From IMG/VR virus record IMGVR_UViG_3300046010_000123, positions 1 to 30,009 of that record: DNA of 30,009 nucleotides, one strand, 5' to 3'. The position numbers and the translations under genes were made by a program. Shown piece after piece: positions 2,127-30,009 of the stretch. Each line of letters starts with the position of its first letter. The first letter of the stretch is position 1. The notes below the pieces were generated by a model. It had not been told where the DNA came from. It was given only the letters and a program-made list of their open reading frames with translations, and searched no databases. The stretch comes from a virus.

Positions 2127-2127
2127 G

Positions 2128-2406
2128 ATGATGGCTTCACGCGGCATGGGGGCCATACGTGCCTCCAAGATGCCTAAACCTGTAACCAAACCTCGTCGGG
2201 ACGATACTGACTTTACGATGTTTGCTAAAGGCGGTATGTCGCGTGTGAACGAAGCTGGCAACTACACCAAACCTGGAATGCGTAAATCGTTATTCAACAG
2301 CATCAAAGCTGGCGGTAAAGGTGGTGCGCCGGGGCAGTGGTCAGCCCGCAAAGCTCAAATGCTTGCCTTGAAGTACAAGCAGAAGGGCGGGGGTTACCGC
2401 GATTGA
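2128..2406 (+). CDS. Small basic protein with GQWSARKAQ domain (DUF5872-like N-terminal half)
   Basis: 92 residues. The first third contains FAKGGMSRVNEAGNYTKPGM and the C-terminal half contains FNSIKAGGKGGAPGQWSARK, ending with LALKYKQKGGGYRD. The KPGQWSARKAQ...Y...GGGY text is a widely distributed small domain that I associate with DUF5872. In many relatives it continues into the domain found here as a separate downstream gene. Function is unknown, and a basic DNA- or protein-binding role is plausible. Starts at 2128 or 2131 are equivalent. The stop overlaps the next start by 4 nt. Confidence 0.65.
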   Translation: MMASRGMGAIRASKMPKPVTKPRRDDTDFTMFAKGGMSRVNEAGNYTKPGMRKSLFNSIKAGGKGGAPGQWSARKAQMLALKYKQKGGGYRD

Positions 2407-2648
2407 AGGCACCGCAGAAAAGTCTAAAAGACTGGACTGACCAGAAATGGAGGACCAAGAGTGGCAAACCTAGCACACAGGGTTCAAAAGCAACTGGCGA
2501 ACGGTATCTCCCATCGGCGGCAATCAATGCTCTTACACCTGCAGAATACGCTGCGACAACAAGAGCTAAACGCGCTGGAAAACGCTCAGGTAAACAATTC
2601 GTCAAGCAACCAAAAGGCATTGCTGCTAAGACCGCGAGGTACAGATAA
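2403..2648 (+). CDS. Small basic protein, 'KSGKPSTQG' domain (DUF5872-like C-terminal half)
   Basis: The most economical start is TTG 2403, which overlaps the upstream stop (2404-2406) as TTGA and gives 81 residues. An ATG at 2337 exists but would read 66 nt of overlap with unrelated text. The protein reads KAPQKSLKDWTDQKWRTKSG, then KPSTQGSKATGERYLP, then LTPAEYAATTRAKR, ending GKQFVKQPKGIAAKTARYR. This pattern is conserved in phages and bacteria and often directly follows the GQWSARK domain in one chain, so the pair here looks like a split version. Function is unknown. Confidence 0.6.
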   Translation: MKAPQKSLKDWTDQKWRTKSGKPSTQGSKATGERYLPSAAINALTPAEYAATTRAKRAGKRSGKQFVKQPKGIAAKTARYR

Positions 2649-2905
2649 TGGCTAAAAAGTTTCCTGATTTAACAGGCGATGGGGATGTAACCAGAGCGGA
2701 CATCCTCAAAGGTCGTGGTGTAGAGGGATTTAAGAGCGGTAAGTTTATTCAAGCTGCGATTAAGAAACCGGGAGCACTTCGTGAACAGCTTGGTATTAAA
2801 GGTAAAAAGCCGATTCCTGCGAAGATGCTTGATAAAGCTACTAAGGCTCCAGGCAAACTTGGGCAAAGAGCTAGACTTGCTAAAACGCTTCGAGGGATGA
2901 AGTGA
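2648..2905 (+). CDS. Small basic protein with dockerin/EF-hand-like calcium loop
   Basis: 85 residues; the start ATG overlaps the upstream stop by one base. Residues 7-18 read DLTGDGDVTRAD, a match to the 12-residue calcium loop (ligand positions D7, T9, D11, D13, T15, D18) found in EF-hands and dockerins. It is followed by ILKGRGV. The C-terminal half (KPGALREQLGIKGKKPIPAK, then KAPGKLGQRARLAKTLRGMK) is a recurrent basic phage module. Only one loop is present, so it is not a complete paired EF-hand. Function is unknown; a small virion or DNA-associated protein is likely. Confidence 0.65.
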   Translation: MAKKFPDLTGDGDVTRADILKGRGVEGFKSGKFIQAAIKKPGALREQLGIKGKKPIPAKMLDKATKAPGKLGQRARLAKTLRGMK

Positions 2906-3612
2906 CCACAACTTCAGGTACGACAGCCTTTAATCTCGATCTAAACGAGATTATTGAGGAGTCATTTGAGCGGTGCGGAATTGAGGTGCGTACTGGGTAC
3001 GAACACCGTACGGCACGTCGTTCTATGAATTTGATGTTTACTGAGTGGGCCAACCGAGGGATTAACCTGTGGACGATTGAGCAGGGTCAGATTGCCATGA
3101 CCACGGGCACAATTGTTTATAACTTACCAGTAGATACAGTAGATCTCATCGAGCAGGTTATTCGTACGCAGACTGGGATACCACAGACTGACATCAACAT
3201 CAGCCGTATCTCGGTGGATACTTATGCCACGATACCAAACAAGAACGCTCAAGGTAGACCGATTCAAGTTTGGATCAACAGGCAGTCAGGGGTACTAACA
3301 CCTACTGGGATTGCGTACCCTACGATTAACGTCTGGCCTGCGCCAGACCAAGACAATTACTACACTTTTGTGTACTGGCGATTGCGCCGGATGCAGGATG
3401 CTGGTGGCGGGGCCAATATTCAGGATGTGCCATTTAGGTTTATTAACTGCTTGGCTGCTGGATTAGCGTACTACTTATCGTTAAAGATACCCGAGGCCGC
3501 GCAGCGCATACCCATGCTGAAAGAGATGTATGACGAGCAGTTAAGGCTTGCGCTAGACGAAGACCGCGAGAAAGCACCGTTGCGTCTCGCACCACGGCAG
3601 TTGTTCTACTGA
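2902..3612 (+). CDS. Head-tail adaptor-like protein (gp4/tail tubular A-like)
   Basis: The GTG start at 2902 overlaps the upstream stop as GTGA; 236 residues. The N-terminal part is helical (EIIEESFERCGIEV, then a conserved MNLMFTEWANRGINLW). A beta region follows with IVYNLPVDTVDLIEQVI, GRPIQVWINRQ and TINVWPAPD, and then helices with DVPFRFINCLAAGLAYYLSL. This order (helical start, a YxLPxD strand, WPxP, a C-terminal helix around LAxxLAYYLxxK) is typical of phage connector or adaptor proteins that sit under the portal. The gene at 4395 has the same architecture. The exact family (P22 gp4-like or T7 gp11-like) cannot be fixed by eye. Confidence 0.65.
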   Translation: MTTTSGTTAFNLDLNEIIEESFERCGIEVRTGYEHRTARRSMNLMFTEWANRGINLWTIEQGQIAMTTGTIVYNLPVDTVDLIEQVIRTQTGIPQTDINISRISVDTYATIPNKNAQGRPIQVWINRQSGVLTPTGIAYPTINVWPAPDQDNYYTFVYWRLRRMQDAGGGANIQDVPFRFINCLAAGLAYYLSLKIPEAAQRIPMLKEMYDEQLRLALDEDREKAPLRLAPRQLFY

Positions 3613-4252: not shown

Positions 4253-4395
4253 AACACAGCAAAATGCCAACGCCTGTGCCTGTTAAAGACACGCACAACG
4301 GTTATCCCAACAATGTACCTAACACCCAAACAGTAAAAGTCCGAGGAACCGGATGTGCTACAAAGGGTACGGGTGCTTCTAAGAAGATGGGCTAA
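4249..4395 (+). CDS. Very small phage protein with VRGTG...KGTGASKKMG tail
   Basis: 48 residues, beginning MKHSKMPTPVPVKDTHNGYP. The start overlaps the upstream stop (ATGA) and the stop overlaps the next start (TAATG), so it fits exactly between two coupled genes. The C-terminal KVRGTGCATKGTGASKKMG is a short motif seen in other small phage proteins (VRGTGAATKGT..). Function is unknown. The exact fit and the recognisable motif support a real gene. Confidence 0.6.
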   Translation: MKHSKMPTPVPVKDTHNGYPNNVPNTQTVKVRGTGCATKGTGASKKMG

Positions 4396-5078
4396 TGAAC
4401 TACTCGACCCTTTTTTCGACGATTCAAGGCTATTTAGAGAACGATTTCCCATCGTTTACTGGTGCTGATTCGTCTGGGTCGGGCACAGCTACGCTGACTG
4501 CTAAGCAGCAGATCGATACGTTCATTAAGCAAGCTGAACAACGAATTTACAACTCAGTTCAGTTCCCGCAGTTTAGAAAGAACCAAACAGGCACGATGAC
4601 CGGGGGTAACAAATACCTTGCTATGCCTACTGATTTTTTAGCGGTTTATGAGTTAGCGGTAACTAATCCGACAACGAGCGAGTATGAGTACTTACTCAAT
4701 AAGGATGTTAGCTATATTCGCGCTTCGTATCCCAATCCAACAACGACTGGGATTCCTAAGTATTACGCGCTTTTTGACGAAAATACGTTGATTCTTGGAC
4801 CTACACCTACTTCAAACTACGCTGTAGAGATCCATTACTTCTATTACCCAGAGTCAATCACTACAGCAAACACGACTTGGCTTGGCGATAATTTTGATTC
4901 GGTGCTTCTCTATGGTTCTTTGGTTGAGGGTTATACCTTTATGAAGGGTGAGGCTGATGTTATTGCCAATTACGCCAAACGATATGAAGAAGCCATGATT
5001 CTTGCTAAGCGTCTTGGTGATGGTATGGACCGCCGCGATGCTTACAGGTCTGGTCAGGTCAGGATGTCGGTGAACTAA
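4395..5078 (+). CDS. Phage adaptor protein (SU10-adaptor-like)
   Basis: 227 residues. Helical N-terminus MNYSTLFSTIQGYLENDFPS, then IDTFIKQAEQRIYNSVQFPQ, a beta part with KYLAMPTDFLAVYEL, and TLILGPTPTSNYAVEIHYFY, then C-terminal helices with YEEAMILAKRLGDGMDRR. The pattern (IxxAExRIYNxVxxP, a YLxMPxDFLxV strand, LxLGPTP, YY) matches the phage adaptor family that includes SU10. It would sit between portal and nozzle. The start overlaps the upstream stop by one base and the stop overlaps the next start. Confidence 0.72.
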   Translation: MNYSTLFSTIQGYLENDFPSFTGADSSGSGTATLTAKQQIDTFIKQAEQRIYNSVQFPQFRKNQTGTMTGGNKYLAMPTDFLAVYELAVTNPTTSEYEYLLNKDVSYIRASYPNPTTTGIPKYYALFDENTLILGPTPTSNYAVEIHYFYYPESITTANTTWLGDNFDSVLLYGSLVEGYTFMKGEADVIANYAKRYEEAMILAKRLGDGMDRRDAYRSGQVRMSVN

Positions 5079-9886: not shown

Positions 9887-10476
9887 TTCAGGGTTTTGCG
9901 TACTTCCCTGCCATCGTCTACCGCGATGAACATCCTGAGTGGGTTGATTATGCGTTAAGAGTGTCTCAAAAATACTTTGACGCGCAAACCAGTCAGGGTG
10001 CCATGTGTCAAACAGGTCATATGGGTAGCGATCCTGAGATGAAGTTTTTAACGGATTATTTGCTGTCAACCAGCCATGACATTCTGGCGGGGCAAGGCTA
10101 CGCAATGGATCGCTATGAGCTTTATGTTTCAGGTTTGTGGGGTCAGGAGGTAAAAGGACATGGTGGCACAAATGTGCATGTGCATAAACACAGCCAGCTT
10201 TGCGGATGGTTTTTCTTAGAAACCCCTGAAGGCGGGTCATATCCTGTGTTTTATGATACTCGTGCTAACAAGCAAATGATTGAGCTTGACTTTGCGCCAA
10301 GCAATGAAGTGACTAACGCAACTTCAACTATCCATTTCAACAACATCATCCCCGGCACGATATTGCTAGCCAATTCATGGATGCAGCATCAACTAACCCC
10401 CAACATGACAGATAAGCCAACCAAGAGCATTCATTTTATTGTTTCACATAGGGATAAGTCATGCAGTACTTGTTGA
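9883..10476 (+). CDS. 2-oxoglutarate/Fe(II) dioxygenase, first of four
   Basis: 197 residues; the start overlaps the upstream stop (ATGA). The double-stranded beta-helix signature reads GTNVHVHKHSQLCGWFFLE (H99, H101, H103), then YPVFYDTR, and later GTILLANSWMQHQLTPN with the distal histidine and KSIHFIVS as the last strand. The layout fits the PF13759-like phage 2OG-Fe(II) oxygenases (HxHxxSxLxG...DxR). Such enzymes use iron, O2 and 2-oxoglutarate to hydroxylate proteins, nucleic acids or small molecules. Substrate is unknown. Overlaps the next oxygenase by 16 nt. Confidence 0.75.
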   Translation: MIQGFAYFPAIVYRDEHPEWVDYALRVSQKYFDAQTSQGAMCQTGHMGSDPEMKFLTDYLLSTSHDILAGQGYAMDRYELYVSGLWGQEVKGHGGTNVHVHKHSQLCGWFFLETPEGGSYPVFYDTRANKQMIELDFAPSNEVTNATSTIHFNNIIPGTILLANSWMQHQLTPNMTDKPTKSIHFIVSHRDKSCSTC

Positions 10477-11048
10477 CACCTTATGCCGAAACAGTTGAGC
10501 CTTTTGTTTGGTGGGAAGGCGCATTTAATGATAAAGAACTTGATTTACTTCAAGAACGAGCTATCAAAGCTGATCAAAGAGCGCAAGTTGGTGGCAATCC
10601 CGATGCAGAGCATTTGGCAAAAATTAGACGTTCTCATATTTCATGGATAGGCTGTAATGACGAAACGCGTTGGGTGTTTGATAAGTTAGCCCATGCTGTG
10701 TCATCACTCAATTCACAGTTTTATCGGTTTGATTTAACAGGGTTTGGTGAACCCTTGCAGCTTACAAACTATGATCAGTCTGAAAACGGTATGTATGGTT
10801 GGCATCAGGATTACGGTGGTAAACGCGGTGTAAGTAGGAAGCTTTCAGCAGTGCTTCAATTGACTGACCCCGCTCAGTATGAAGGCGGTAATCTCCAAGT
10901 AATGACAGGGGGTCAGCCAATGAATGTACGGAAACAGCGTGGACTTATCGCTGTTTTTCCTTCATACCAACTTCATCAAGTAACACCCGTGACGCAAGGC
11001 AGTCGTCAAAGTCTTGTGGCATGGCTTTCAGGACCAGCATTTCGATGA
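10461..11048 (+). CDS. 2-oxoglutarate/Fe(II) dioxygenase, PKHD-like, second of four
   Basis: 195 residues. Iron ligands are visible as H115-x-D117 in YGWHQDYGG and H172 in YQLHQVTPV; R182 in SRQSLVAWLSGP fits the 2-oxoglutarate-binding arginine. The strands between (SAVLQLTDP, YEGGNLQVM, RGLIAVFPS) follow the prolyl-4-hydroxylase/PKHD fold closely. This is the most canonical of the four. Proteins of this type commonly hydroxylate Pro, Asn or Lys side chains, but the target here is unknown. Overlaps both neighbours (16 nt and 4 nt). Confidence 0.85.
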   Translation: MQYLLTPYAETVEPFVWWEGAFNDKELDLLQERAIKADQRAQVGGNPDAEHLAKIRRSHISWIGCNDETRWVFDKLAHAVSSLNSQFYRFDLTGFGEPLQLTNYDQSENGMYGWHQDYGGKRGVSRKLSAVLQLTDPAQYEGGNLQVMTGGQPMNVRKQRGLIAVFPSYQLHQVTPVTQGSRQSLVAWLSGPAFR

Positions 11049-11641
11049 ATATTGAGTACAACGGATTTATTGGTATTTATAACGATGTGTATCCTGAAGG
11101 ATATTGCCAACACTTAATTAGTGAGTTTGATCGTTTAGAAAAAGATAGTGTAGGGTCCAATCGTTGGCAATCCGAAAAAGCTTTAGAATCTAGAAAAAAT
11201 GATTACCAGATTGGCTTAGATTTACGGGGCCATAGCACTAATGACTTTCAAGATAAACGTATTGTGTCTATGTTTTTTGATGGTTTACAAGTTTGTTATG
11301 ACGAGTACACACGTAAATTTTCAAGCCTCAAAGATGGAAAAATTCGTGCTAATGTGATGAAAATGCAGCGCACTCCTCCTGGTGGTGGCTACCATGTTTG
11401 GCATGGGGAACAAGGCAACGGAGATCATACAGGGCGGGTGCTTGTTTATATGCTGTACCTCAACACGTTAACGCAAGAAGAGGGTGGCGAAACAGAATTT
11501 TTGTACCAAAGGCAGAGATTTAACCCAACTAAAAATCAAATGATTTTATGGCCTGCTTCATTTACTCACACTCATAGGGGCAATACTGTGCTTGGGGATT
11601 GTTCAAAATATGTCGTAACAGGGTGGTTTTATTATGACTGA
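11045..11641 (+). CDS. 2-oxoglutarate/Fe(II) dioxygenase, P4H-like, third of four
   Basis: The start ATG 11045 overlaps the upstream stop as ATGA and gives 198 residues; an in-frame ATG at 11021 would overlap the upstream gene by 28 nt. Motifs: PPGGGYHVWHGEQG (probable iron ligands H120-x-E122, with Glu in place of the usual Asp), VLVYMLYLN, GGETEFLYQ, ILWPASFTHTHRGN (distal H175 or H177) and KYVVTGWFYYD with K188 as the likely 2-oxoglutarate anchor. This is a prolyl-4-hydroxylase-type arrangement. Base composition is AT-rich (about 34% GC in two sampled lines around 11101-11220). Confidence 0.78.
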   Translation: MNIEYNGFIGIYNDVYPEGYCQHLISEFDRLEKDSVGSNRWQSEKALESRKNDYQIGLDLRGHSTNDFQDKRIVSMFFDGLQVCYDEYTRKFSSLKDGKIRANVMKMQRTPPGGGYHVWHGEQGNGDHTGRVLVYMLYLNTLTQEEGGETEFLYQRQRFNPTKNQMILWPASFTHTHRGNTVLGDCSKYVVTGWFYYD

Positions 11642-12227
11642 AGCGATTACAAACCCAGAACAGTTTGAACGGTTTGGTTGTGTGCTGGTCCAAGAATTTT
11701 TAGACCCAGTAACAACACAAACAATTTCAATGTATTTAGAAAACAAACTTCGTAGACAAGAATGGCAGGCAAGTTCAGAAAATCCTACGACCGAACTCGC
11801 ATATTACGCCGATCCGCTAATTGAAACGGTGTTGTTAAATAGTCTTCCTTTGGTGTCTGAGGTGTGCGGTAAGGAGCTTTACCCAACCTATTCTTATATG
11901 CGTGTTTATCAGCCTGGGGAAGAGCTTGAGCCGCATGTTGATCGTCCATCTTGCGAGATTAGCGTTACAGTCAATGTTGCTTCAAAAGGTCGCCCATCCC
12001 CAATATGGATGCACTATAAAGATAATGAACCCCATTCATTTACACTCAATCCAGGTGATGCGGTTATATATAAAGGCTGTGAAGCAAAGCATTGGCGTGA
12101 TACTTTTAAGCGCGATCAAATGAATGTTCAATTTATGTTGCACTATGTTGACACTGCTGGACCACATGCGGATAAACGCTTTGACGCTAGGTCTGGTCTA
12201 GGTTTTCCCTCTACACGGAGGTCATAA
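11634..12227 (+). CDS. 2-oxoglutarate/Fe(II) dioxygenase, fourth of four
   Basis: 197 residues; the start lies 8 nt inside the upstream gene. YSYMRVYQPGEELEPHVDRP gives H101-x-D103, followed by SCEISVTVNV, and the distal histidine is H153 in CEAKHWRD after PGDAVIYKG. The R-Y-x-x-G-x-x-L-x-x-H-x-D-R-x-x-C-E-I-S text is a recognisable phage 2OG-Fe(II) oxygenase signature. Substrate unknown. The stop overlaps the start of the glycine-rich protein by one base, so oxygenases and adhesin are in one translational chain. Confidence 0.8.
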   Translation: MTEAITNPEQFERFGCVLVQEFLDPVTTQTISMYLENKLRRQEWQASSENPTTELAYYADPLIETVLLNSLPLVSEVCGKELYPTYSYMRVYQPGEELEPHVDRPSCEISVTVNVASKGRPSPIWMHYKDNEPHSFTLNPGDAVIYKGCEAKHWRDTFKRDQMNVQFMLHYVDTAGPHADKRFDARSGLGFPSTRRS

Positions 12228-18578: not shown

Positions 18579-21500
18579 ATGGCTACGAGAACCATCACTC
18601 TTAACGGACAGACGCTCACTTGGGATACAGGTGCGGGCGTTCGTGATAAAGCCGATGCCTATAATTCTTGGAAAGATGCAGGAGCGTCTGATGCTGCAAT
18701 TAAAACTGCATTAGAAAAAGCTTTTGGTGAAACAATTCCCGATAAAGATTGGACTTATCTTGGTGGGTACGCTGCGACGACTCGCGCTATTAATAACGAC
18801 AACAAGATAACTGCTGATGAATTTGCTGGACTTGAAAACCAAGGGTTTCAGCCTGCTGAGATTGCTAATCTAATTGGTGGTATTACTGGGGAAGTCCCGC
18901 CTCTCGCTGAAATTCAGCAGTTAGACACGGCTGCATCGGCGCTAAGTTCTGGTGCAAATACTGGTGCAAATACTGGTGCAAATACCGGTGCAAATACCGG
19001 TGCAAATACGGGTGCAAATACGGGTGCAAATACGGGTGCAAATACGGGTGCAAATACGGGTGCAAATACTACAACCACCACAAACAAAGGACTTACTACA
19101 CTACTACCGTTTGGGAACCCGGATTACACCTGGAACACTGAAGGAACGTTAGGATCAAAACAAGCACTCGTCCAAAAGATGAAAGACGACGGGTTTACTG
19201 TAGCCCAAATCCGAAACGAAATCAGCAGATTAGAACCGGACAAGTCTGCCTTAACTGAAGCCAACTTTAAGTTACTTGGGTTGGAAGCCGTACTACCTAA
19301 ACCTGCTGATACGGCTACAACAACCGCAGCAGCCGCAGACATACCAGCCTCAAGCAAAATCTATAACATCGGTGGGTTGCAGTGGAACAGTGGTGCGAGC
19401 TTAGATACCAAGAAGGGTTATGTCCAAGACCTGCTAAAGATGTACACGCCGGATCAAATTAAATCCATCATTAGGTACAACGACCCAGCAAATGCCACTG
19501 ATGAAAACTTTGCACTTCTAGGTTTACCTGCGGGTGCTTCTAAAGCTGCGACACCAACTGGGTTTAGCGCACTGTATAAAGCTCCTACTGAACTAGCACC
19601 GTCGCGTGGACTAGGTGCGCTTGTTTCTCAGTATGTTGGTCAGCCTAATTTGCGGACGATGACTCGTTCGATTGGGCCTGAAGGTATGGGCAAGCTGACT
19701 GAGCAGCCTTCAGCAGCTCTTTCCTATGCAACTCGCCCTGGCGGTATTGGAGAGACTCAATACTTTCAAAATATACGTGATTTCTTTGCAGATCCTAAAG
19801 TTACTCCGCAAGATGCCGCTTATCAAATGTCTCGATACAACATCCCTGAGACAGACATACAAGCTGCTATCGGTTTGACACCTACACAGTTCTTTGCTCA
19901 AAAACAATTAGCTGCGGATAGACAAGCTGCTTTGGATGCCGCAAAGCAAACCAAAGTTGAAAAAATTGAAGCTTTACCCCCTCCTTCGCTAACTTATGGT
20001 GGAGCACCTATTTCTTTAGGAACAAATACTGGGGGCGCGGGTAATACTGTTGGTGGGGCAGGTAATACTGTTGGCGGAGCAGGTAATACTGTTGGCGGAG
20101 CAGGTAGTACTGTTCTGGGTGGTGAAGGATCTTCGTTTAGTGGTGGTGCAGGTGGTATAGGTGTTGGTGGCGGCGTTGGCGGCGTTGGTGGTGTAAGTGA
20201 TGTGGATAGTGGTGCTAGCGACAACGACTCCGTAATTAGCACAATCTTAAAATCAATAGTCGGACCTTCCCAAGAACCCGCGCCTATTAGAAGAGCGGGC
20301 GATCCAGACACGCCTCCACCACCTACCGAAGATAATAGAGCAGGGGGGCCGATAGCCCTTGCCGAAGGGGGTGATACAAAAATGGCTGGGGAGCAGAAGT
20401 TCTCGTTTGAGGATTTCGGTCTTAAGCCTGCCACGGTAAAAGATGTAGACCTGCGTACCCCCAGAGATGTGCTCTTTAATCCTGAACTTCGTGGGTTAGA
20501 AGCATTAGTTTCATCTCGTATGACACCTAGAGATTACGAAGATTTGCTAATCCGGCAGGGTCGTACTGGTAGAGAATATTTAAAGTACCTTCCTGATATT
20601 CGTGTTGGTGGTGCGGCAACGGGCGACATTCGTCCGCTTAACTATTACTACGCCGAAGGCGGTGACGTTGGTCGAGGGTTGGGCAGTATTGCCATGAAAG
20701 GCTATGCTCAAGAGATGGCACAGAAAGGTCGGTTTGGCGACACGATGCTAGCTCACATTAGCCCCGAAGAAGCTCAGATGCTACAAGCCGCAGGTGGTGC
20801 GGGTACTATAAACCCACAGACGGGCCTGCCTGAGTTTTTTAGTTGGCGTAAAACGTTAAAAGGGATTGCTAAAGTAGCGCCGTTCATCGTGCCATTTATT
20901 CCTGGAGTAGGTCTTGCTGCTAAAGCACTAATTTCTGGTGTTGCTGGTGGTCTTGGCGGCGAGAAAGGCTTTGACTTTAAACGCGGTCTGATGTCAGGCT
21001 TGATGTCTTATGGCATTGGTAGTGCCGCACAAAATCTTGGACTTACAAGCGGAGCCGCACCCACAGGTGCAGAGGCAGCGGCAACATCTACGAGTGGGCT
21101 TACCCCACCAGTACAGGCATTAGGGGATGCTGGGGAAATTGCTAGGACAGTTGTCAATCCAACCGGAACTGCTTCTTTGGATTTTCCTACAAATGTCGGC
21201 GTACCTGCTGGAGACGCTAGCGTAGCTGAACAAGTGCGGGGAATGGCTCCTAGTTCAAATACCTTACAAGGGTATGTAGGCCCAGAAAGTCGTATAGGTG
21301 CAGCACCAACTCCACAATCGTTCACAGACAAACTAACTGCTGGGTTAGAAAAAGCCCAATCAGTGGTAGATCAACCCATAAGCACCATGTATGCGTTGCC
21401 GTTGGCAGTTGGTTCAGCCGGTATGGTGTCTGAAGGTGATAAGTACGCGCAGGCTATGGCAGCACAGGAAGCGGAAGAAGAACGTAAAAGGCGGCGTGGG

Positions 21501-21863
21501 GCAGATTTGTTTGCCGAAACACTTGGACGTATACCATTCCGTGCAGCTTCAGGAGGTATGGCTGGGCTTGGCGCACTTGCTGCGGGGGGTGCCACTGGAC
21601 CTGCTAACGAACCACGCACAATAAATGGCGCAGGGGATGGCATGAGTGATAGTGTGCCTGCTACCATCGAGGGTGTTCAAGAGGCGCGTCTTGCCGATGG
21701 TGAGTTTGTGATTCCTGCCGATGTTGTTGCAGATCTAGGTAACGGCTCCAGTAATGCTGGGTCTAAGAAACTTTACGCCATGATGGATCGAGTTAGAAAA
21801 GCACGACATGGCACAACAAGACAACCGCCCGAAGTAGATACGGGTCGTTTGATGCCTGCTTAA
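18579..21863 (+). CDS. Large internal/ejection-type virion protein with repeats
   Basis: 1,094 residues. N-terminal half: about three related 55-60-residue modules (residues about 9-65, 175-236 and 260-320; W, a helix, then LLGL-type ends), a 10-copy GANT linker (125-164) and a fourth looser helical module near 391-439. A GGAGNTV linker follows (485-512). The C-terminal half has AEGGD motifs (about 592 and 690), a conserved [20 protein letters not shown], a long hydrophobic Gly-rich segment (about 757-822, [20 protein letters not shown]) and a conserved end with [20 protein letters not shown] and [14 protein letters not shown]. This layout is typical of large internal proteins of aquatic podoviruses. 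The hydrophobic segment could act in the membrane during DNA ejection; that is inference. Confidence 0.62.
18951..19070 (+). repeat. 12-bp tandem repeat, exactly 10 copies (encodes GANT)
   Basis: Ten consecutive GGTGCAAATAC(T/C/G) units occupy 120 bp. Only the last base varies, in blocks: T,T,C,C,G,G,G,G,G,T. Blocks of identical neighbours are the mark of recent slippage or unequal exchange. Confidence 0.97.
20031..20114 (+). repeat. 21-bp tandem repeat, 4 copies (encodes GGAGNTV)
   Basis: Four in-frame 21-nt units encode GGAGNTV three times and GGAGSTV once, forming a flexible linker before a Gly/Val-rich stretch. Confidence 0.9.
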
Positions 21864-21873
21864 GGAAATAGCT

Positions 21874-23025
21874 ATGAGCACTACGCAAACAATTACCACC
21901 GCAGCCGAGATACCAAAAGTCCTAGAACAGTTTTATTTAGGAACCGGCAAACAAGGCGAAACAGGATATCAGCCAGGACTCATTGGTCGTGGTATATCTG
22001 AAATATTTCCAAGCGGACTTACCGGTGCCGATGCGTATAGAGAGCAGTTTAAAACACTAGAACAAGCCGGATTGTTGGGTAGAGGCAGTGTTGCTGGTCT
22101 TTCGCCTTTTCAAGAAGCAGTAGGTACGCAGCTTGGTACGATGAGCGCAACTCCAAGCCAGTACGCACTTGGTACGCAGGCTGGACAATCAGCGGCATCA
22201 GGACTGCAAGCACTACAAAATTACCAAAGCATGGGTGTAGCTGGGCCACAGCTAACTACCTTTCAAATGGACCCTGCTCGGCAATTCAGCGCCGCAGAAG
22301 CCCAAAGTTATATGTCGCCGTATATGCAGTCGGTTGTGGATCGTCAACAGGCGGCGGCACTTAAATCAGCTAGAGAAGCACAGTTAGGACAGAATCTTGC
22401 TGCGGCGCGTCAAGGCACTTATGGCGGTGCTAGACAGACTCTTCTCCAAGGAGCAAGGGAAGCCGGACTCCAGTCAACATTGGCCGATATTCAGGCTAAG
22501 GGTCTACAGTCTGCGTTTGAAAATGCACAGGCACAGTTTGAGCGTGATCGCGCAGCGCAGATGGGTGTTGGTAGTCAGAACCTGCAAGCAGCACTTGGGG
22601 TACAACAACTTGGTGCAGGCCAAAACCTACAAGCCCAACTAGCTAATCAAGCAGCACAGCAACAAGCAGCACAAACTCAACTTGCTGCGGCACAAGGGCT
22701 TACTGGACTTGCTGGTCAATTTGGTCAGCTTGGTACGCAACAACGTGCGGCAGAACTTGATACGCTTAAGACGCAAGGTGCGTTTGGTGACTTACAACGT
22801 GCCATTGAGCAACAGAAGATGGACGCTCAGCGTCAACAACTTACGGATCAAGCTCAATACGGTTTGACTCAAGTGGGGCAACTCTCTAACTTGCTGCGTG
22901 GTATCCCGATGCAGGGTTCAACACAAACAGCAACAACGCCCCCACCGAGCTTTGCTAGTCAGTTGACTGGCTTAGGCTTGACAGGAATTGGGCTGTATAA
23001 CATGCTTGGCGGGGGTCCAAAATGA
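21874..23025 (+). CDS. Internal virion protein, Ala/Gln-rich helical
   Basis: 383 residues with AAGGA upstream. After an N-terminus with TTAAEIPKVLEQFYLGTGKQ, a conserved middle reads YMSPYMQSVVDRQQAAALKS, then GTYGGARQTLLQGAREAGLQ. A long Ala/Gln/Leu-rich helical region follows (residues about 210-345), likely coiled coil, and a short hydrophobic C-terminus (LTGLGLTGIGLYNMLGGG). The MSPYMQxVVDxxxxxA...GxYGGxRxxL text recurs in aquatic phage structural clusters. The composition and order resemble ejection-core proteins, but this is not proven. Overlaps the next gene by 4 nt (ATGA). Confidence 0.62.
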   Translation: MSTTQTITTAAEIPKVLEQFYLGTGKQGETGYQPGLIGRGISEIFPSGLTGADAYREQFKTLEQAGLLGRGSVAGLSPFQEAVGTQLGTMSATPSQYALGTQAGQSAASGLQALQNYQSMGVAGPQLTTFQMDPARQFSAAEAQSYMSPYMQSVVDRQQAAALKSAREAQLGQNLAAARQGTYGGARQTLLQGAREAGLQSTLADIQAKGLQSAFENAQAQFERDRAAQMGVGSQNLQAALGVQQLGAGQNLQAQLANQAAQQQAAQTQLAAAQGLTGLAGQFGQLGTQQRAAELDTLKTQGAFGDLQRAIEQQKMDAQRQQLTDQAQYGLTQVGQLSNLLRGIPMQGSTQTATTPPPSFASQLTGLGLTGIGLYNMLGGGPK

Positions 23026-24866
23026 GCCTTCGGACATTAGAAAAAGCGATTAATAGGACCGCAGATCGTACGGTTGGTGACATTGTTGCCACTTATGGAT
23101 CTAACGTGCAACGTCTGAAGATGGACGCTGCTGCGGGAAAGATTGACCCCACGACGGCACTTATGGCGATGATGACGATCCAACGGATTGTCGCTGCAAA
23201 CACTCAACCACCGTCCGGCACAACCGTGGCACAAGATACTGGGATGGCACCTCCCCCACAACCGATGATGCCCCCACCTGCTGCACCGCAACAAGCTCCA
23301 GTCGGTATGGCCTACGGCGGTCAAGTTGCTATTAGTAATAACCAAGTACCATCACCTGCGATGGAGCGTGGCATCTCCGGCCTACCTGTGCCTGACAACA
23401 TGTTTGACTATGCTGATGGCGGCATGATTGCATTTGCTGGTGGTGGGGATGTACAGCGGTTTGCTCTGGGTGGTCAGATGGAGTTATTTCCTGAACTAGA
23501 TCGGTTCGGGCAACCTAAACCAAGACTAAGTGGTGCTCCAAGACCTACTGGCACGACATTCGCTCAAGCATTTCCAAGCGCAGCGGCAACACCTGCTGCT
23601 GCGACACCATCAATGTTTTCTCGTGGATTAAGCTTTTTGAGTCGTTCGTTTCCAGGCGCAGCAGCAATAGGAACTGCCTTGTTCGGCTCGGATGACCTAA
23701 ATGCTAATGAAGCAGAGACATTAGCAGTACTTAAACGTCTATACGCTTTGGGTTATACGCAAGAACAAATTAACGCAATGAAGCCTGAAGAGGCTAAGCG
23801 TGTCGCTATTGCAAATAAACCGCCTCAAGAAACATTCCCGCAAGCTGCGGCGCAACAAGCTGAGGCAGAAGCGCAAGCTGCGGCTAATAAACCGCCACCC
23901 CCGAAAGTTCCTGCTGCTGCACCCGCAGCACCGGCTGCTGCCCCTGCAAAACCTGTTGAGCTTGGACCTGTACCCATGTTGTCTGCTGCACGCTCTGCCG
24001 CAGAAGGTACGTTACAAGCAGAAGGGGGTAAAGATATTCCGGTGGTTCCTGGGCTTTCGCAAATCAGAAGTGAACGAGTCAAACAGCTTACTGATGAAGG
24101 TTATGACTTCAATCTTCTCAAAGATATGGTTGCTGAGAACCGCAAAGATATTGAAGCGGTTCCGCAAAAACGAAAAGAAGCTGCCAATATGCGGGTTCTC
24201 GAAGCAGGATTAGCCATTCTAGGCGGCGCGTCACCACATGCGTTTGTCAATATTGGCAAGGGTGCTGAAGGTGCCGTAAAAGGTTACGCTCAGGATATTA
24301 AAGAGCTTGACAAGCTTGAACGTGATTACAAGTTGCAGGAACGTCAGATTCGTACGCTTCAAAACAAAGAAGCCGCAGAGTTTACGAAGGCAGACCAAGT
24401 ACGTTTGGATAAAGCTATTGAGCGGCGTGACAACGCTCTGGATAAATACAACTTACGTGTTGATAGACTTGCCGGGATTATGTACGAAGGCGAAATGGGT
24501 CTATACAAGCAGAAGGCACAAGATGCTGCGGCTATGGAGCGTACTCAGGCGCAGGTTAGAGGACAGTTAGAATCGGCAAGGATAGGGGCTAGTAGACCTT
24601 CACAACTTTCAGAGTTGCGAGATTTGTTCCGTAGCAGTAATCCTGAAGATAGACGATTAGCTGAGTCGTTTATTGGTCAGAACAAGATGGGCAAACTCAC
24701 ATATGAGGAAGCTATGAAGATAGTAACAAGCAACCCAAGAAATCTGAGTAAAAGTCCCGCTGAATTATCAAGGTTAGCTAGAGAAGAAATGCAGCGAGCA
24801 GAAGGCGGAACTGCTGCCCCAGCTCCGGTCAACTACTATGAAAAATACGGATTAGCTGCTAAATAG
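23022..24866 (+). CDS. Internal virion protein with GG motifs and C-terminal coiled coil
   Basis: 614 residues; the start overlaps the upstream stop. An N-terminal helix (LRTLEKAINRTADRTVGDIV) is followed by Pro/Gln-rich linkers and a cluster of A-x-GG motifs (MAYGGQV, YADGGMIAFAGGGDVQRFAL, then GGQM). Next come Ala/Pro-rich linkers (residues about 270-320) and a C-terminal conserved block: MRVLEAGLAILGGASPHAFV, NIGKGAEGAVKGYAQDIKEL and a long charged helix. The EAGLxxxxGxSPxAFxNIGxGA signature recurs in internal proteins of uncultured podoviruses. A likely partner of the genes at 18579 and 21874 in an internal core or ejection apparatus. Confidence 0.6.
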   Translation: MSLRTLEKAINRTADRTVGDIVATYGSNVQRLKMDAAAGKIDPTTALMAMMTIQRIVAANTQPPSGTTVAQDTGMAPPPQPMMPPPAAPQQAPVGMAYGGQVAISNNQVPSPAMERGISGLPVPDNMFDYADGGMIAFAGGGDVQRFALGGQMELFPELDRFGQPKPRLSGAPRPTGTTFAQAFPSAAATPAAATPSMFSRGLSFLSRSFPGAAAIGTALFGSDDLNANEAETLAVLKRLYALGYTQEQINAMKPEEAKRVAIANKPPQETFPQAAAQQAEAEAQAAANKPPPPKVPAAAPAAPAAAPAKPVELGPVPMLSAARSAAEGTLQAEGGKDIPVVPGLSQIRSERVKQLTDEGYDFNLLKDMVAENRKDIEAVPQKRKEAANMRVLEAGLAILGGASPHAFVNIGKGAEGAVKGYAQDIKELDKLERDYKLQERQIRTLQNKEAAEFTKADQVRLDKAIERRDNALDKYNLRVDRLAGIMYEGEMGLYKQKAQDAAAMERTQAQVRGQLESARIGASRPSQLSELRDLFRSSNPEDRRLAESFIGQNKMGKLTYEEAMKIVTSNPRNLSKSPAELSRLAREEMQRAEGGTAAPAPVNYYEKYGLAAK

Positions 24867-24874
24867 GGGGCATC

Positions 24875-27800
24875 ATGGCTGAAGGTCGTTATGACAGGGT
24901 CATCCGTAATGTAAGAAAGATGATCTCGCAGGGTGCTCCTGAATTTGATATTGATGGGTATCTTGATTCTGAAGGACTTACCCCATCACAATTTAAACGT
25001 ATCGTCGAAGGTCCGACAATTGGCGGACAACTCAAGGAAGCCGTCAAGGGCATAGTGCCTGGAGCGATTGGGCTTGTTGAGCAAGCTGCTGTTGGTGCGT
25101 CTGCGCTCTTACCTGACCAGTATGAAGCTGGTGCACAGGAAGCCATTCGTGGAGTTGCTGCCGCAGCGAAGAAACCATTTGCACCTGAAGCAGGGTACGA
25201 AGAATCGGTAGGTCGTAAGTTTGGTGAAGCGGTAGGTTCGTTTGGACCGTTCTTGGGTTTAGGTGCACTGGGTGTCGCAGGTCGTGTCGGAGCAGGTGCA
25301 CTAGCTACGGGGTCTGGTGCGGGTGAAGCGTTAACACGTGCACAACAAGAAGGTGCGACTCCTGGGCAGCAGTCTCTATCCACAGGACTTGGTGCCGTTG
25401 TGGGTCTGTCTGAACTTATTACACCGTTCAGAATCTTATCGCGCATACCTGAAGGCGAAGTATTAAGCGCGGCTAATCGCATAAAACGTGTCGCACTTGC
25501 CGGTGGAGAAGAAGCTGCACAAGAAGCTGCTGCTGGGTTAGCACAGAACTTAATTGCTCGTGGCGTTTATAAACCTGAACAACAACTTGTTGAGGGGCTA
25601 GGCGAACAGGCTGCATATGGTGGTGCGGTTGGTGCGTTGGCACAAGGTCTTTTAGATGTTGCACTTGGACGTAGAGCTAAAACTGCGGCTACACCGGCAC
25701 AACCCACTACCCCTGCGGTAGAAGAACAAGCAACTACGGCAGCGGTTACGCAACCTGCTGCACCTACAACATTTGCCCCCGTACGCGGTGTACCAGAGAC
25801 TGCTACACAGCAAGACCTCTTTACAGAAGAAAACATTCAGCGCACCGCACAATCAACACGTGATGCTCAGGACCGTCTGTTTAAGTTGAGAGATGAATTT
25901 GATCTTTATCAGCGAGAGAACGAAAGACTTGCGGCAGCTTATGAACGTGAAACTGATCCTACTAAAAAGCAGCAGATCTACGATCAAGCAGTAGCACTTG
26001 CAAAGCCACTCAGCGAACTAAAGACTCAGATCGAAGCTGTAAAAGGTACGCTTGGTGCAGCGGAAGGTGCACGCCCTGGCACTGGAGAACCGCAGCTAGA
26101 TTTTGAAGCTCCGTTGCCTAGTATCGGTGATCGCGTTGGACAAGTTACTAAGACTGAGTACCGACCAGATACAGGGGCGGTTATTGGCGAAGAAGCCGCA
26201 GCTCCACGTTTGAACGAGCAGCAACAGCGCATGCTGGAAGAACAGCGTGTGCAAGGTATTCGTGACAAGATCGCAGCAGGAGAACCCGTAACCCAAGCGG
26301 ACATGATGCGGGTTAAGTTCTTAGAGCGTGATCAGTATCAAGAGGAAGCAGCTAAACCGACCCCTGAGTTAGACCTATCGCAGCAAAAAGTAACTAGGTT
26401 TCCATTAACGCTTCAGCGCACGGACATCGAGCAGCAGAAGATGAAAGTGCAGGAGCAACCTGCTGCACCAGAAACTCGTCCTGTGACAGAACAGGACTTT
26501 CGTACGATGGGAGTTGCTGCAACTAACAAGAAGTTACGCAGTGAGTTGTTAGGTAAAGATTTATCTAACCCCGAAGATCGTAGGTTTGTGAAGGAGCGTC
26601 TTGAGGCTTTTGCTTCAGACCCTAATCGTAGTCCTGGCATTGTTAAGAAGGTTGAGAACTTTTTAGATAGTCCTATATTCTTTGAGCAGATGGAGTTACC
26701 GTTAGCTCCGAGGAGAAAACAACGTGTCAAACAACCTAAGCAACCTGTCGCCGGAGCAAGTCAGCCAAGCGTTCCTGTACCTGACCAAGGAGCTGCCGTC
26801 GCTGCCCCCGGACCTGAAGCACCTGTCACAACTGGAGTGGGCGAACCTGCATTACGCGCTGAGCCACGTGATGTGGCAGAAGGAAAACAGCCCGCTCCAG
26901 TAAATCCTGAAGTAGAAACCCTTCGTAAGCAATATCAGCGCAGGGTGGAGAAGGGAACAATGGAGCTTGCTGATGCTAAGCCCATCGAAGATTTGTTGGC
27001 GAATCCAACACCGGAAAACATCAATCAAGCGCGTCAGATCCTAAAGGGCACTGCCACCGTAGGAGAAGGAGTTGTCGCGGGAGTTGCGCTTACTCCTGAA
27101 GAACAACGTGCGTTAGATAAAGAAGCAAAAGCTACAGTACGTAGAGAAGGCGCGGGGACAGTAAAAATTCCTGGCACGTTGTACCGCACGCAAAGGTCTG
27201 AAGAACAAGCTGCGGGTATGGACCCTGCAATCGTTGAAGATTATGTTGCTCAAATTGTAGACGGTTGGAAAAACGCGCCTGTCATTGATGTTGTCAATAC
27301 ACCTGCCGACTTACCAAAGCGGTTACGTGAAGGCACGGATATTCAGCCTGGGTTGTTTGATCCTGTCACGGGGCGTGTGTTCGTTATCGCGTCTAATCTT
27401 AAAAACGAATTAGACCTTTTCCAAACAGTTTTGCATGAAACCGTAGGGCACTACGGTATGCGTTCGCTTCTTGGGGATAGCTACACCCGAGTAATGAACA
27501 ACCTGTACAACGGCAACGAAAAGGTACGGGAAGCTGCAAAAGAAAAGATGGAGGCAAACTCCAAACTAACCAAAGAAGTAGCGGTTGAAGAGTTTTTAGC
27601 TGAAGTCGCAGAGAGGAACATTAAGCCAAATCCAAGCAAAGCTGACAAGAGCCTTGGCAATCAGATCGTTAGGTTCTTCCGTAATGCGCTTAGAAAGTTG
27701 TTTGGTAAAAAAGCAGACTTGATCTCTGATACAGAGGTGCTGGATATCGTTGCTGAAGCTCGGATGTTTGTGCAAACGGGCACCCCTACGCAAGGTTATA

Positions 27801-30009
27801 AAAATGTTTCAGATAGAGAAGTGCCGCTTTACCGTACCCCAGAAACAAGTGCGTTCAAAAAATGGTTTGGTGATAGCAAGATAGTTGACAAAGACGGGAA
27901 GCCGTTAGTTTTATATCGTGGAATACAAGGCGATGCGGAGGGGGCACTCAATGCTGAGCCAAGAGGGAAGTACAACGTTTTTGCATCGGATAGCCCAGAC
28001 GTTGCTGCCTCATATGGTATGCCAGACGAAACTTTCGGGACTCCCGGTTCTATCCTTCCGATATACGTCAAGGCAGATAAACTAATTGAGTTCCCCGTAA
28101 CTGTAGACCGATACGGTTCACGTAGTTTTGACAAGATAGAGTTTGACCGCCGCGCTAGACTCCTTGCCCCTGGCGAAGTTCTTGTAGCCAGACAGGTAGT
28201 TGATATCGGGCCTATGTCTCGTGAAGCGTATGCGGTAGATAAGGAAAAAAAGTACTCCTACTATAGTGATGTCTACGCACTTGGCAGGGGAACTTCAGTT
28301 AAATCCGCCGTTGGCAACCGAGGAACGTTCGACCCCACAAGTCAAGATATCCTTTATCGCACTCCAACACCCGCACTAACAGCAGCGGGGCAGCAAGCAC
28401 AAGCAGCGGTAGCTGCTATGGCAGGTATAACAAATGCCAAGCCCAAGGGTCCGCAGATGTCTACGCTTCAAAAAGTTGGAGCGTTCTTCCAAGACCCTGC
28501 ATACCGTCAAGAGCAGATCGATAAGTTCCGTGTGCAGGTAGCGTATAAGGGTGCGGCTGCTGAGTCGAAGCTCGCCATGCTCAACCAGTACAACGGCAAG
28601 ATCCGTGATGCGTTAGGTAACATTCGTCCTGATGTGTTTATGACTGCTGCGGAACATGCCGATACGATGGCTGTTGCCGTGATGAAGGATGGCAAGTTAA
28701 AGCTTGATCCGAAGGTGGGCTGGGTTGCAGAGAAGGGCACTGCTTCCTTCCAAGGTGTTATCGATAAGATCAAGGATCTTGGCACCAAGCTAGGCGATCA
28801 GCAGCTCGCGTTTAAATTAGCAAACGATGCGTTTATTGCTCGTCGTGCGAACTACTTCAAACAGCACCCGCAACTTGGTATCTCTGGCTTACCTGATGAT
28901 GCAAAGATCAAAGCAGGTATGCAAGCCTTCAAAGACTTCCCTGAGTTAGAAGCTGCGTTCAAAGAGTTCACCACATTTAAGAACAACTTGATTGATGCGG
29001 GTGTCGATGCAGGACGCTTTAGTAAAGAGCAAGCTGCCGAGTGGAAAGAAGCTGCGGACTATGTACCGTGGAACCGTATCAAAGATTATGAGGACAAGAT
29101 TGCTACAAGTCCTCAAGCGTACTTCCGTGGGTTGACCAACCTCAAGCAGATGAAAGAGATCCGAGGCGGCACCGACGAGATCAACGACATCTTTGACAAC
29201 ATGGTGGGCCTGTCCTTCTGGCTTGTTAACGGTGCGATACGCAACCATGCTGCGGTGCAACTTACTGACGCATTTGTATCCAACGGGTTAGGTGCGCGGC
29301 AGGTACGCCAAGGACAGCCTGGAGTTGACCCCAACAAGACAATCTATATCTACCGCGATGGCAAGCCTGAAGTCTATGAGTACGAGTCGATAGCAGATGT
29401 TTATGCGTTCAAGGGTGTGGAAAGCATGGGGGGTCCGATCCTCAGCAGCTTCACTGCGTTCGCTAACATCTTACGGCGCACGACCACAGCTACTCCTCAG
29501 TTCGCAGCAAGTCAGTTATTCCAAGATGCGTATCGCGCCACGGTGACATCAGGCGTGAAGAATCCGTTTGAGGTTGCTGCCAAAGTCTTAACAGGTGCAG
29601 TGGGTGCGTACCGTGGGGATGCCACGACACAGCAGCTTGAGAAGTTTGGGATTGTGGGCGCATATGACCTGATGCCTGGACGTGCCAAGGATGAGATCGA
29701 GAAAGAGTTTGGGATTCGGCAGCGGTCTGTGCTTGAGAAGGGGCTGTCGTTCATGGAGTCATTCTCCATCGCCTCTGATGCCTCGTTGCGTAAAGCAGTC
29801 TTTGAGCAGACGTTAGAAGAAACTAAGTCGCCGCAGTTCCCCGATGGTGACGTGCTGCTTGCACGGTATCGCGCTCAAGAAGTCATCAACTTCAAACGGC
29901 AAGGTGCAAACCGGACGGTGGGTCTAATGCGCCAACTCATTCCGTTTATGAACGCCTACATCCAAGGTATGGATGTGTTCTACCGCACAATGACCGGACG
30001 TGGGGTTGC
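24875..30009 (+). CDS. Giant polyvalent protein (metallopeptidase- and ADP-ribosyltransferase-like domains), 3' end outside window
   Basis: ATG 24875 follows AGGGGG at 4 nt. The frame stays open to the right edge, giving at least 1,711 residues. N-terminal 30 residues look like a small capsid-targeting helix pair; Gly/Ala-rich segments at about 50-180 could be membrane-active. Around 850-912: LHETVGHYG (H854, E855, H859, a HExxGH zinc motif as in dipeptidyl peptidase III) and, 46 residues later, EEFLAE (E905/E906 as third-ligand candidates). Around 986-1168: TPETSAFKKWFGDSK, then LVLYRGI (Y1014, R1015), FASDSPDVAASYG and NRGTFDPTSQDILYRTP, matching the ADP-ribosyltransferase-like domain of polyvalent proteins. 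The last visible region (RQLIPFMNAYIQGMDVFYRT) resembles LPD38. Polyvalent proteins are thought to be co-injected with phage DNA to counter host defences. Confidence 0.8.
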   Translation, partial: MAEGRYDRVIRNVRKMISQGAPEFDIDGYLDSEGLTPSQFKRIVEGPTIGGQLKEAVKGIVPGAIGLVEQAAVGASALLPDQYEAGAQEAIRGVAAAAKKPFAPEAGYEESVGRKFGEAVGSFGPFLGLGALGVAGRVGAGALATGSGAGEALTRAQQEGATPGQQSLSTGLGAVVGLSELITPFRILSRIPEGEVLSAANRIKRVALAGGEEAAQEAAAGLAQNLIARGVYKPEQQLVEGLGEQAAYGGAVGALAQGLLDVALGRRAKTAATPAQPTTPAVEEQATTAAVTQPAAPTTFAPVRGVPETATQQDLFTEENIQRTAQSTRDAQDRLFKLRDEFDLYQRENERLAAAYERETDPTKKQQIYDQAVALAKPLSELKTQIEAVKGTLGAAEGARPGTGEPQLDFEAPLPSIGDRVGQVTKTEYRPDTGAVIGEEAAAPRLNEQQQRMLEEQRVQGIRDKIAAGEPVTQADMMRVKFLERDQYQEEAAKPTPELDLSQQKVTRFPLTLQRTDIEQQKMKVQEQPAAPETRPVTEQDFRTMGVAATNKKLRSELLGKDLSNPEDRRFVKERLEAFASDPNRSPGIVKKVENFLDSPIFFEQMELPLAPRRKQRVKQPKQPVAGASQPSVPVPDQGAAVAAPGPEAPVTTGVGEPALRAEPRDVAEGKQPAPVNPEVETLRKQYQRRVEKGTMELADAKPIEDLLANPTPENINQARQILKGTATVGEGVVAGVALTPEEQRALDKEAKATVRREGAGTVKIPGTLYRTQRSEEQAAGMDPAIVEDYVAQIVDGWKNAPVIDVVNTPADLPKRLREGTDIQPGLFDPVTGRVFVIASNLKNELDLFQTVLHETVGHYGMRSLLGDSYTRVMNNLYNGNEKVREAAKEKMEANSKLTKEVAVEEFLAEVAERNIKPNPSKADKSLGNQIVRFFRNALRKLFGKKADLISDTEVLDIVAEARMFVQTGTPTQGYKNVSDREVPLYRTPETSAFKKWFGDSKIVDKDGKPLVLYRGIQGDAEGALNAEPRGKYNVFASDSPDVAASYGMPDETFGTPGSILPIYVKADKLIEFPVTVDRYGSRSFDKIEFDRRARLLAPGEVLVARQVVDIGPMSREAYAVDKEKKYSYYSDVYALGRGTSVKSAVGNRGTFDPTSQDILYRTPTPALTAAGQQAQAAVAAMAGITNAKPKGPQMSTLQKVGAFFQDPAYRQEQIDKFRVQVAYKGAAAESKLAMLNQYNGKIRDALGNIRPDVFMTAAEHADTMAVAVMKDGKLKLDPKVGWVAEKGTASFQGVIDKIKDLGTKLGDQQLAFKLANDAFIARRANYFKQHPQLGISGLPDDAKIKAGMQAFKDFPELEAAFKEFTTFKNNLIDAGVDAGRFSKEQAAEWKEAADYVPWNRIKDYEDKIATSPQAYFRGLTNLKQMKEIRGGTDEINDIFDNMVGLSFWLVNGAIRNHAAVQLTDAFVSNGLGARQVRQGQPGVDPNKTIYIYRDGKPEVYEYESIADVYAFKGVESMGGPILSSFTAFANILRRTTTATPQFAASQLFQDAYRATVTSGVKNPFEVAAKVLTGAVGAYRGDATTQQLEKFGIVGAYDLMPGRAKDEIEKEFGIRQRSVLEKGLSFMESFSIASDASLRKAVFEQTLEETKSPQFPDGDVLLARYRAQEVINFKRQGANRTVGLMRQLIPFMNAYIQGMDVFYRTMTGRGV

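What the first reader, a model, noticed from the sequence alone, without database searches (positions are those of the whole stretch)
24875..30009. Polyvalent protein combining HExxGH metallopeptidase and ADP-ribosyltransferase-like domains
One chain of more than 1,711 residues carries a HExxGH motif with a downstream EExxAE, an ART-like domain with YRG, DxPxVAxxYG and NRGTFDP text, and an LPD38-like end. The HExxGH spacing is unusual compared with HExxH and is shared with dipeptidyl peptidase III. Two toxin- or effector-like enzymes on one co-injected protein fit an early anti-defence or host-takeover role.
Basis: partly seen in the sequence, partly recalled or inferred. Interest (0 to 1): 0.66.

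Follow-up and report, generated by a model that had tools for sequence, protein, structure and literature searches.

The report
Phage injected protein with swappable enzymes
A virus of bacteria carries one very long protein, probably injected with its DNA, whose two ends are conserved while the enzymes in the middle (a metal-dependent protease and a protein-modifying enzyme) are swapped between related viruses; the kind of protein is known, the swapping pattern and an altered active site are the new part.

Summary
The open frame 24875-30007 is the first 1711 residues of a 2034-residue protein, complete in overlapping contig L002. HETVGH (854-859) lies in a zincin-type metallopeptidase domain, residues 994-1163 have an ADP-ribosyltransferase (ART) fold, and a true LPD38 domain follows at 1744-1914, just past the window. 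The kind is known: Iyer et al. 2017 described phage polyvalent proteins with LPD38, ARTs and zincins, including a set with this longer HEXXXH motif. The dipeptidyl-peptidase III comparison is superficial.

What goes beyond the finding: the middle of the gene is an exchange slot. Close relatives keep both flanks (88-96% identical DNA) but swap the peptidase between two remote zincin classes (HEXXXH, HEXXH), and carry the ART, another domain or nothing behind it. All 10 aligned relatives have a peptidase; 5 have the ART. The ART is under purifying selection and moves on its own, yet this lineage has Arg where most polyvalent ARTs have the strand-1 His.

Most likely the peptidase belongs to the delivery vehicle (self-processing) and the ART is cargo acting on the host. 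Both activities are inferred, none tested. "Two co-injected effectors" is only partly supported.

The parts
24875..30009 (+). Polyvalent, probably ejected protein, residues 1-1711 of 2034 (3' end cut by the contig end)
   Evidence: complete in L002:8001-14105
24875..26903 (+). N-flank (residues 1-676): two hydrophobic 19-mers at 60-79 and 126-144 and Gly/Ala-rich stretch; conserved in relatives, matches phrog_10691
26904..28371 (+). Exchange cassette (about residues 677-1166), replaced as a block in relative L007 (and nearly the same block in L008)
   Evidence: blastn: L002 vs L007 88.8% up to gene nt 2029, no match 2030-3497, 95.6% from 3498
27182..27802 (+). Zincin-type metallopeptidase domain (modelled residues 770-976); predicted ligands H854, H859, E906, general base E855
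27434..27451 (+). HETVGH (residues 854-859)
   Evidence: H, E, H invariant in 87 of 87
27587..27613 (+). EEFLAEVAE (residues 905-913), third-ligand motif; E906 invariant
27854..28363 (+). ADP-ribosyltransferase domain (residues 994-1163), R1015 in place of the usual strand-1 His
28364..30009 (+). C-flank, first part (residues 1164-1711); LPD38 proper begins at residue 1744, outside the window
21874..23025 (+). Neighbour: predicted DNA ejection protein (phrog_4287, E 8e-13)
23022..24866 (+). Neighbour: 614-aa protein of unknown function between the ejection protein and the polyvalent gene

Best explanation
This is an LPD38-type phage polyvalent protein, packaged in the head and ejected with the DNA (inferred). 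Its conserved ends are the delivery vehicle and its middle is a slot for exchangeable enzymes (the exchange is shown). The zincin, here of the HEXXXH class, works on the protein itself or on the ejected assembly, freeing or activating domains (inferred). The ART is optional cargo that ADP-ribosylates a host target early in infection (inferred; its Arg-for-His active site leaves catalysis unproven).
For: Architecture: LPD38, ART fold, zincin fold with four catalytic residues invariant in 87 of 87.

Exchange: blastn of close relatives shows 88-96% identical flanks around non-matching cassettes. L002 and L005 share the ART but not the peptidase; L005 and L007 share the peptidase but not the ART; L009 and L011 differ by presence of the ART. 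ART dS is 0.11 between L002 and L009 where flank dS is about 1.15, and 2.7 between L002 and L003 where flank dS is 0.2-0.4: separate histories.

Peptidase as part of the vehicle: present in 10 of 10 aligned relatives, ART in 5 of 10. Among 27 non-redundant complete proteins with this C-flank, 19 have a class A or B zincin by profile and 21 have an HEXXH or HEXXXH within 450 residues before it, against 0.4 expected. The class B profile also matches solved ejection proteins: 9sfn, E 2.4e-17; PhiM1 gp48, 8vb2, E 4e-11; N4 virion RNA polymerase, about 1e-3.

Selection: dN/dS in the A peptidase 0.02 and in the ART 0.04 for L002 vs L003.
Against: No enzyme activity, cleavage site or virion proteomics exists for this phage. 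Eight of the 27 C-flank proteins lack a class A or B profile match, and five of them have no HEXXH in the slot other than a ParB-like HEGRH, so the peptidase is not universal across the wider family. One class A relative (L087, dropped from the 87) has lost the HE..H motif. The C-flank matches no solved structure by sequence and not the C2 domain of N4 polymerase, so the link to ejection proteins rests on the peptidase and on gene neighbourhood. The ART lacks the canonical His. The A and B classes are linked only weakly (hhalign E 7e-5, probability 62%).
Confidence: 0.6

Rival explanations
1. Both enzymes are host-directed effectors: the peptidase cuts a host defence or regulatory protein and the ART modifies another.
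For: Iyer et al. list host-directed proteolysis as one option for these peptidases. Swapping of peptidase class among close relatives resembles arms-race turnover.
Against: The peptidase is never missing among the 10 aligned relatives while the ART is. Its class B form also sits in solved ejection proteins. The A peptidase is highly constrained (dN/dS 0.02 between L002 and L003).
Confidence: 0.25
2. The zincin is a structural or allosteric domain of the ejection machine that keeps the metal site but performs no proteolysis, as may be so for the unprocessed N4 virion RNA polymerase.
For: N4 polymerase is packaged unprocessed although it has this domain, which is in the region needed for encapsidation (PMC5512222 section 8); its C-terminal domain is reported to inhibit the polymerase (PMC12633501 passages).
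Against: H, E, H and E invariant in 87 of 87 aligned sequences, including the general-base Glu that a purely structural metal site would not need.
Confidence: 0.15
3. The peptidase is a miniature relative of dipeptidyl peptidase III (M49), sharing HExxGH and a following Glu motif.
For: Same HExxGH spacing; M49 also has both HEXXGH and HEXXH members (abstracts of PMC5805324 and PMC9820243 in a listing).
Against: None of 87 members matches an M49 Pfam model at E 0.01; the Glu motif differs; the fold ranks with lethal factor, ArdC and IrrE.
Confidence: 0.03
4. The ART is a decayed, catalytically dead copy kept only as a spacer.
For: R1015 instead of His; the strand-5 region is unlike the canonical FxPTQIKSA; L003 and L005 lost the terminal GTFDP.
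Against: Strong purifying selection (dN/dS 0.04 L002 vs L003; 0 nonsynonymous against 16 synonymous changes L002 vs L004); the same R-type ART persists in four loci (L193-L196) at 50-100% identity.
Confidence: 0.2

Closest known systems
Phage polyvalent proteins with zincin MPTase, ART and LPD38 (Iyer et al. 2017, PMC5512222)
   Same: Same three domain types, late-gene context, HEXXXH peptidase set described, autoprocessing model proposed
   Different: That paper, in the sections and passages read, does not give the block exchange of peptidase classes at one locus nor the Arg-type ART clade
LPD38 giant proteins of Bcep22-like phages (JC1 gp69, 'DarB-like')
   Same: LPD38 near the C-terminus; last large gene of the morphogenesis block; detected in virions (PMC9144972 passages)
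   Different: 4515 aa with LT-like, LPD3, COG4646, HepA and YtxK matches in its domain table; no ART is listed in the table passage read
PhiM1 tetrameric ejection protein gp48 (PDB 8vb2) and internal virion protein 9sfn
   Same: Carry a domain that the class B zincin profile matches (E 4e-11 and 2e-17), with an HExxH
   Different: Shorter (1263 and 1337 aa); HEXXH class; C-flank not detectably related by sequence
N4 virion RNA polymerase gp50
   Same: Ejected giant protein; HExxH zincin-like C1 before a large helical C-terminal part
   Different: Polymerase payload; C2 does not match the C-flank here
Tox-ART-HYD2 / ART-PolyVal (PF18760)
   Same: Fold, WFG-SK-VVD lead-in, YxG strand 1, AxxY, SAxGNxGTFD tail
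   Different: Arg for the strand-1 His; below the Pfam cut-off
Dipeptidyl peptidase III (M49)
   Same: HExxGH spacing
   Different: No profile match; different Glu motif; different closest folds

Membership tests
Phage-type polyvalent protein | Several unrelated enzymatic domains in one large polypeptide | tested here: met
   Zincin and ART folds predicted in a 2034-aa protein
Phage-type polyvalent protein | Encoded beside virion genes | tested here: met
   phrog_3287 virion structural and phrog_4287 DNA ejection protein upstream; phrog_2941 head/packaging gene at 4395-5075
Phage-type polyvalent protein | Packaged in the virion and injected | not testable with these tools
   Only a precedent: JC1 gp69 in virions (PMC9144972)
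LPD38 (PF18857) | Profile match above cut-off | tested here: met
   L002 residues 1744-1914, 112.9 bits against a cut-off of 27; outside the window
Zincin-like MPTase of polyvalent proteins, HEXXXH set | HEXXXH in a helix and a Glu in a following helix | tested here: met
   Helices 76-111 and 131-145 of the model; H, E, H, E 87 of 87
Zincin-like MPTase of polyvalent proteins, HEXXXH set | N-terminal helix plus three-stranded sheet before the active helix | tested here: met
   H15-26, E35-38, E57-60, E65-69
Zincin-like MPTase of polyvalent proteins, HEXXXH set | Zinc binding and proteolysis | not testable with these tools
   No assay
Tox-ART-HYD2 / ART-PolyVal | ART fold | tested here: met
   The 50 rows listed for the model are ARTs (one, 6kyf, known as an ART from recall), best Z 6.8; Z is modest
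Tox-ART-HYD2 / ART-PolyVal | His in strand 1 | tested here: not met
   R1015; A8 column H 44, R 9, K 1, T 1 of 55
Tox-ART-HYD2 / ART-PolyVal | Tyr in strand 2 | tested here: inconclusive
   Y1047 of AxxY kept (39 of 55 Tyr), but which Tyr is catalytic was not established
Tox-ART-HYD2 / ART-PolyVal | Asp in strand 5 | tested here: inconclusive
   D1132 candidate, D in 15 of 55; kept in the R-type clade, alignment uncertain
Tox-ART-HYD2 / ART-PolyVal | PF18760 above curated cut-off | tested here: not met
   24.7 bits against 31.2
Dipeptidyl peptidase III (M49) | Match to the family profile | tested here: not met
   0 of 87 members at E 0.01
Dipeptidyl peptidase III (M49) | M49 catalytic fold | tested here: inconclusive
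   Fold comparison of the model cannot exclude a family

The most novel reading that the evidence does not exclude
The conserved ends are a general delivery vehicle for injected enzymes with a cargo slot. A zincin is its obligate release enzyme, which can be replaced by a remote class but not lost, and the same zincin is a shared part of short-tailed-phage ejection proteins (PhiM1 gp48, 9sfn, N4 polymerase), so ejection proteins and polyvalent effectors are one continuum. The cargo ART is a clade that has replaced the active-site His by Arg, stays under selection, and hops between phages as a unit.
Probability: 0.3. Interest if true: 0.7.

Novelty: new variant of a known kind. Interest (0 to 1): 0.48.

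Why it matters
If the slot reading holds, close phage pairs that differ only in the cassette are natural experiments: the same vehicle with peptidase A or B, with ART, with an ATPase, or empty. That makes two open questions testable, namely what polyvalent-protein peptidases cut and what the injected ARTs modify. It would also tie a poorly understood domain of solved ejection proteins to a peptidase function.

Tried and rejected
Rejected: (1) M49 kinship, see rivals. No M49 row appeared in the fold comparison, which by itself excludes nothing. (2) C-flank equals the N4 polymerase C2 domain: hhalign probability 0.2% against one, incomplete N4 sequence. (3) Solved relatives of the A peptidase, the ART and the C-flank by sequence: chance-level rows only. 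(4) Pfam on the class A peptidase: nothing consistent, 14 families with one member each, so this class seems to have no Pfam model. (5) NCBIfam: nothing useful. (6) Pfam identity for the GHEGRHRA domain of L008: none; likeness to ParB-type domains is recalled.

Rows dropped before counts: of 98 selected class A sequences 86 plus the window went into A7. The 12 left out are L004, two of L087, L112, L069, L099, L109, L047, a second L090, L116, L114, L168; one L087 match lacks HE..H and L047 has HEGGH, both against invariance. Of 60 ART references 52 were used, plus window, L003 and L005. One search counted 96 pattern matches in 76 of 80 loci; one (Ser) lies outside any ART. One search counted only ORFs complete in the locus, 43 exact-unique, 27 non-redundant; two of its 21 motif hits are HEGRH, probably ParB-like. 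L006, cut before the cassette ends, was left out of the ten-row alignment.

Papers: PMC5512222 abstract, sections 8 and 34 and passages; PMC9144972, PMC12633501, PMC11440229, PMC9024508, PMC9503650, PMC9569702 passages; PMC5805324 and PMC9820243 abstracts in a listing. Remarks that something was not seen in print rest on searches only.

Full report
What is there. The open frame 24875-30007 reads 1711 residues to the end of the record, and the record is the whole window. Contig L002 overlaps it at 99.992% over 13,135 bases and completes the protein at 2034 residues. Pfam finds LPD38 at 1744-1914 (E 2.6e-32) and a sub-threshold ART-PolyVal at 1005-1152.

The peptidase. HETVGH is one of a large family. 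Relatives were found in 7 phage records, 7 plasmid records, 24 genome-contig loci and 69 viral loci, some in proteins annotated with LPD domains. Of 114 distinct profile matches 97 read HE..GH, 15 HE...H with another residue before the second His by a first-match regex (in one of these, L104, a true HEAVGH overlaps the string picked), one HEGGH and one neither. In the 87-sequence alignment H854, E855, H859 and E906 are invariant. The model (mean pLDDT 83, pTM 0.81) has an N-terminal helix, three strands, a long helix with both His and a later helix with E906. Its nearest solved folds are zincins: lethal factor, Z 8.1, 156 aligned, rmsd 5.2; ArdC, Z 6.7, 117 aligned, rmsd 4.3; IrrE, Z 6.1, 91 aligned, rmsd 2.8. 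These are middling scores and show fold, not function. Foldseek itself gave no match below E 0.17. Atomic distances were not available.

The ART. The model (pLDDT 79, pTM 0.75) lists ARTs throughout (exotoxin A and its relatives, PARPs, tankyrases, ParT, and 6kyf, an anti-CRISPR protein recalled to be an ART), best Z 6.8; Foldseek E is 0.07 or worse. Of 96 strand-1 pattern matches in the ART set 82 have His and 11 Arg. The window clade (L193-L196) is all Arg and shares an unusual strand-5 region, YSYxSDVYAxGKGTSVKSA or close to it. The clade is not visibly decaying: dN/dS is 0.04 for L002 vs L003, and L002 vs L004 has no nonsynonymous change against 16 synonymous.

The slot. Alignment of ten relatives and blastn show conserved flanks and an exchanged middle. 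L002, L003 and L004: HExxGH peptidase plus ART. L005 and L009: HEIVH peptidase plus ART. L007, L010, L011: HEIVH peptidase alone. L008: HEIVH peptidase plus a domain with GHEGRHRA. L012, 28% identical: HEVTH peptidase alone. L121, whose C-flank is 68-70% identical, has a GHKL-type ATPase domain (PF13589, E 5e-8) before its HEIAH. In L005 the end of the ART is replaced by a tail that L008 has behind its own second domain, a visible junction. Synonymous divergence confirms separate histories: L002 and L009 differ by dS 1.15 in the flanks but 0.11 in the ART; L002 and L003 differ by 0.2-0.4 in the flanks but 2.7 in the ART. A more distant phage, L194, has the same order, class A peptidase (HEVGAH), R-type ART, C-flank; L195 has the ART before a class B peptidase.

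Peptidase and C-flank as partners. Of 27 non-redundant complete C-flank proteins 21 have an HEXXH or HEXXXH within 450 residues before the C-flank (0.4 expected on shuffling) and 26 within 1500 (0.5 expected); 19 are supported by class A or B profiles, which were partly built from the same proteins. Eight are not, so the pairing is strong but not universal. Of 107 distinct class A proteins 29 also carry an ART and 26 this C-flank (lower bounds, because many ORFs are cut by locus ends).

Link to ejection proteins. The class B profile matches the internal virion protein 9sfn (E 2.4e-17), the PhiM1 tetrameric ejection protein gp48 (8vb2, E 4e-11) and N4 virion RNA polymerase (about 1e-3) with the HExxH aligned. 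The PhiM1 paper calls this region (268-528) endolysin/exotransglycosidase-like (PMC11440229 passages); the sequence match suggests a zincin instead. The gene order here (383-aa ejection protein, 614-aa protein, 2034-aa protein) recalls T7 gp14-gp15-gp16, but that comparison is from recall and was not tested. The C-flank itself has no solved relative by sequence and does not match N4 C2.

Mechanism. Shown: domain content (by profile and predicted fold), invariant catalytic residues, exchange of cassettes, purifying selection. Inferred: packaging and ejection, proteolysis, self-processing, ADP-ribosylation of a host target. Iyer et al. proposed this processing idea and also the alternative that the peptidases act on host proteins. 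The data here favour the first, because a vehicle part should be conserved and replaceable by an equivalent while cargo should come and go.

Verdict. The finding is a genuine member of a described kind. The DPP III angle fails. The exchange slot, the remote peptidase classes that replace each other, and the Arg-type ART clade are additions worth a specialist's look, at moderate interest.

Noticed in passing
window 18579-21863 and homologues in L003, L004, L005, L006, L008, L009, L011: The 1094-aa gene three genes upstream keeps its last ~510 residues (48-74% identity in six of seven homologues; 98% over the last 197 in L006) while its N-terminal part is replaced or rearranged; lengths 898-1377 aa. 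A second mosaic gene in the same block, no Pfam match.
   Followed up: partly
PDB 8vb2 (PhiM1 gp48) residues 328-512: Annotated in its paper as endolysin/exotransglycosidase-like, but the class B zincin profile matches it with E 4e-11 and aligns an HExxH and the later EF motif.
   Followed up: partly
L121 residues 838-968 of the fragment L121:3-4562: A GHKL-type ATPase domain (PF13589, E 4.7e-8) in a polyvalent protein with a nearly 70% identical C-flank: another cargo type.
   Followed up: no
L008:10947-11705: Between peptidase and C-flank a domain with GHEGRHRA instead of the ART; no Pfam match, ParB-like from recall.
   Followed up: no
window 10461-12227: Three adjacent genes matching 2OG-Fe(II) oxygenase (phrog_61, twice) and a 'ferrochelatase' family (phrog_2954).
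   Followed up: no
L195: Same R-type ART but placed before a class B peptidase (ART 1002-1172, peptidase 1194-1400): order within the cassette can invert.
   Followed up: no
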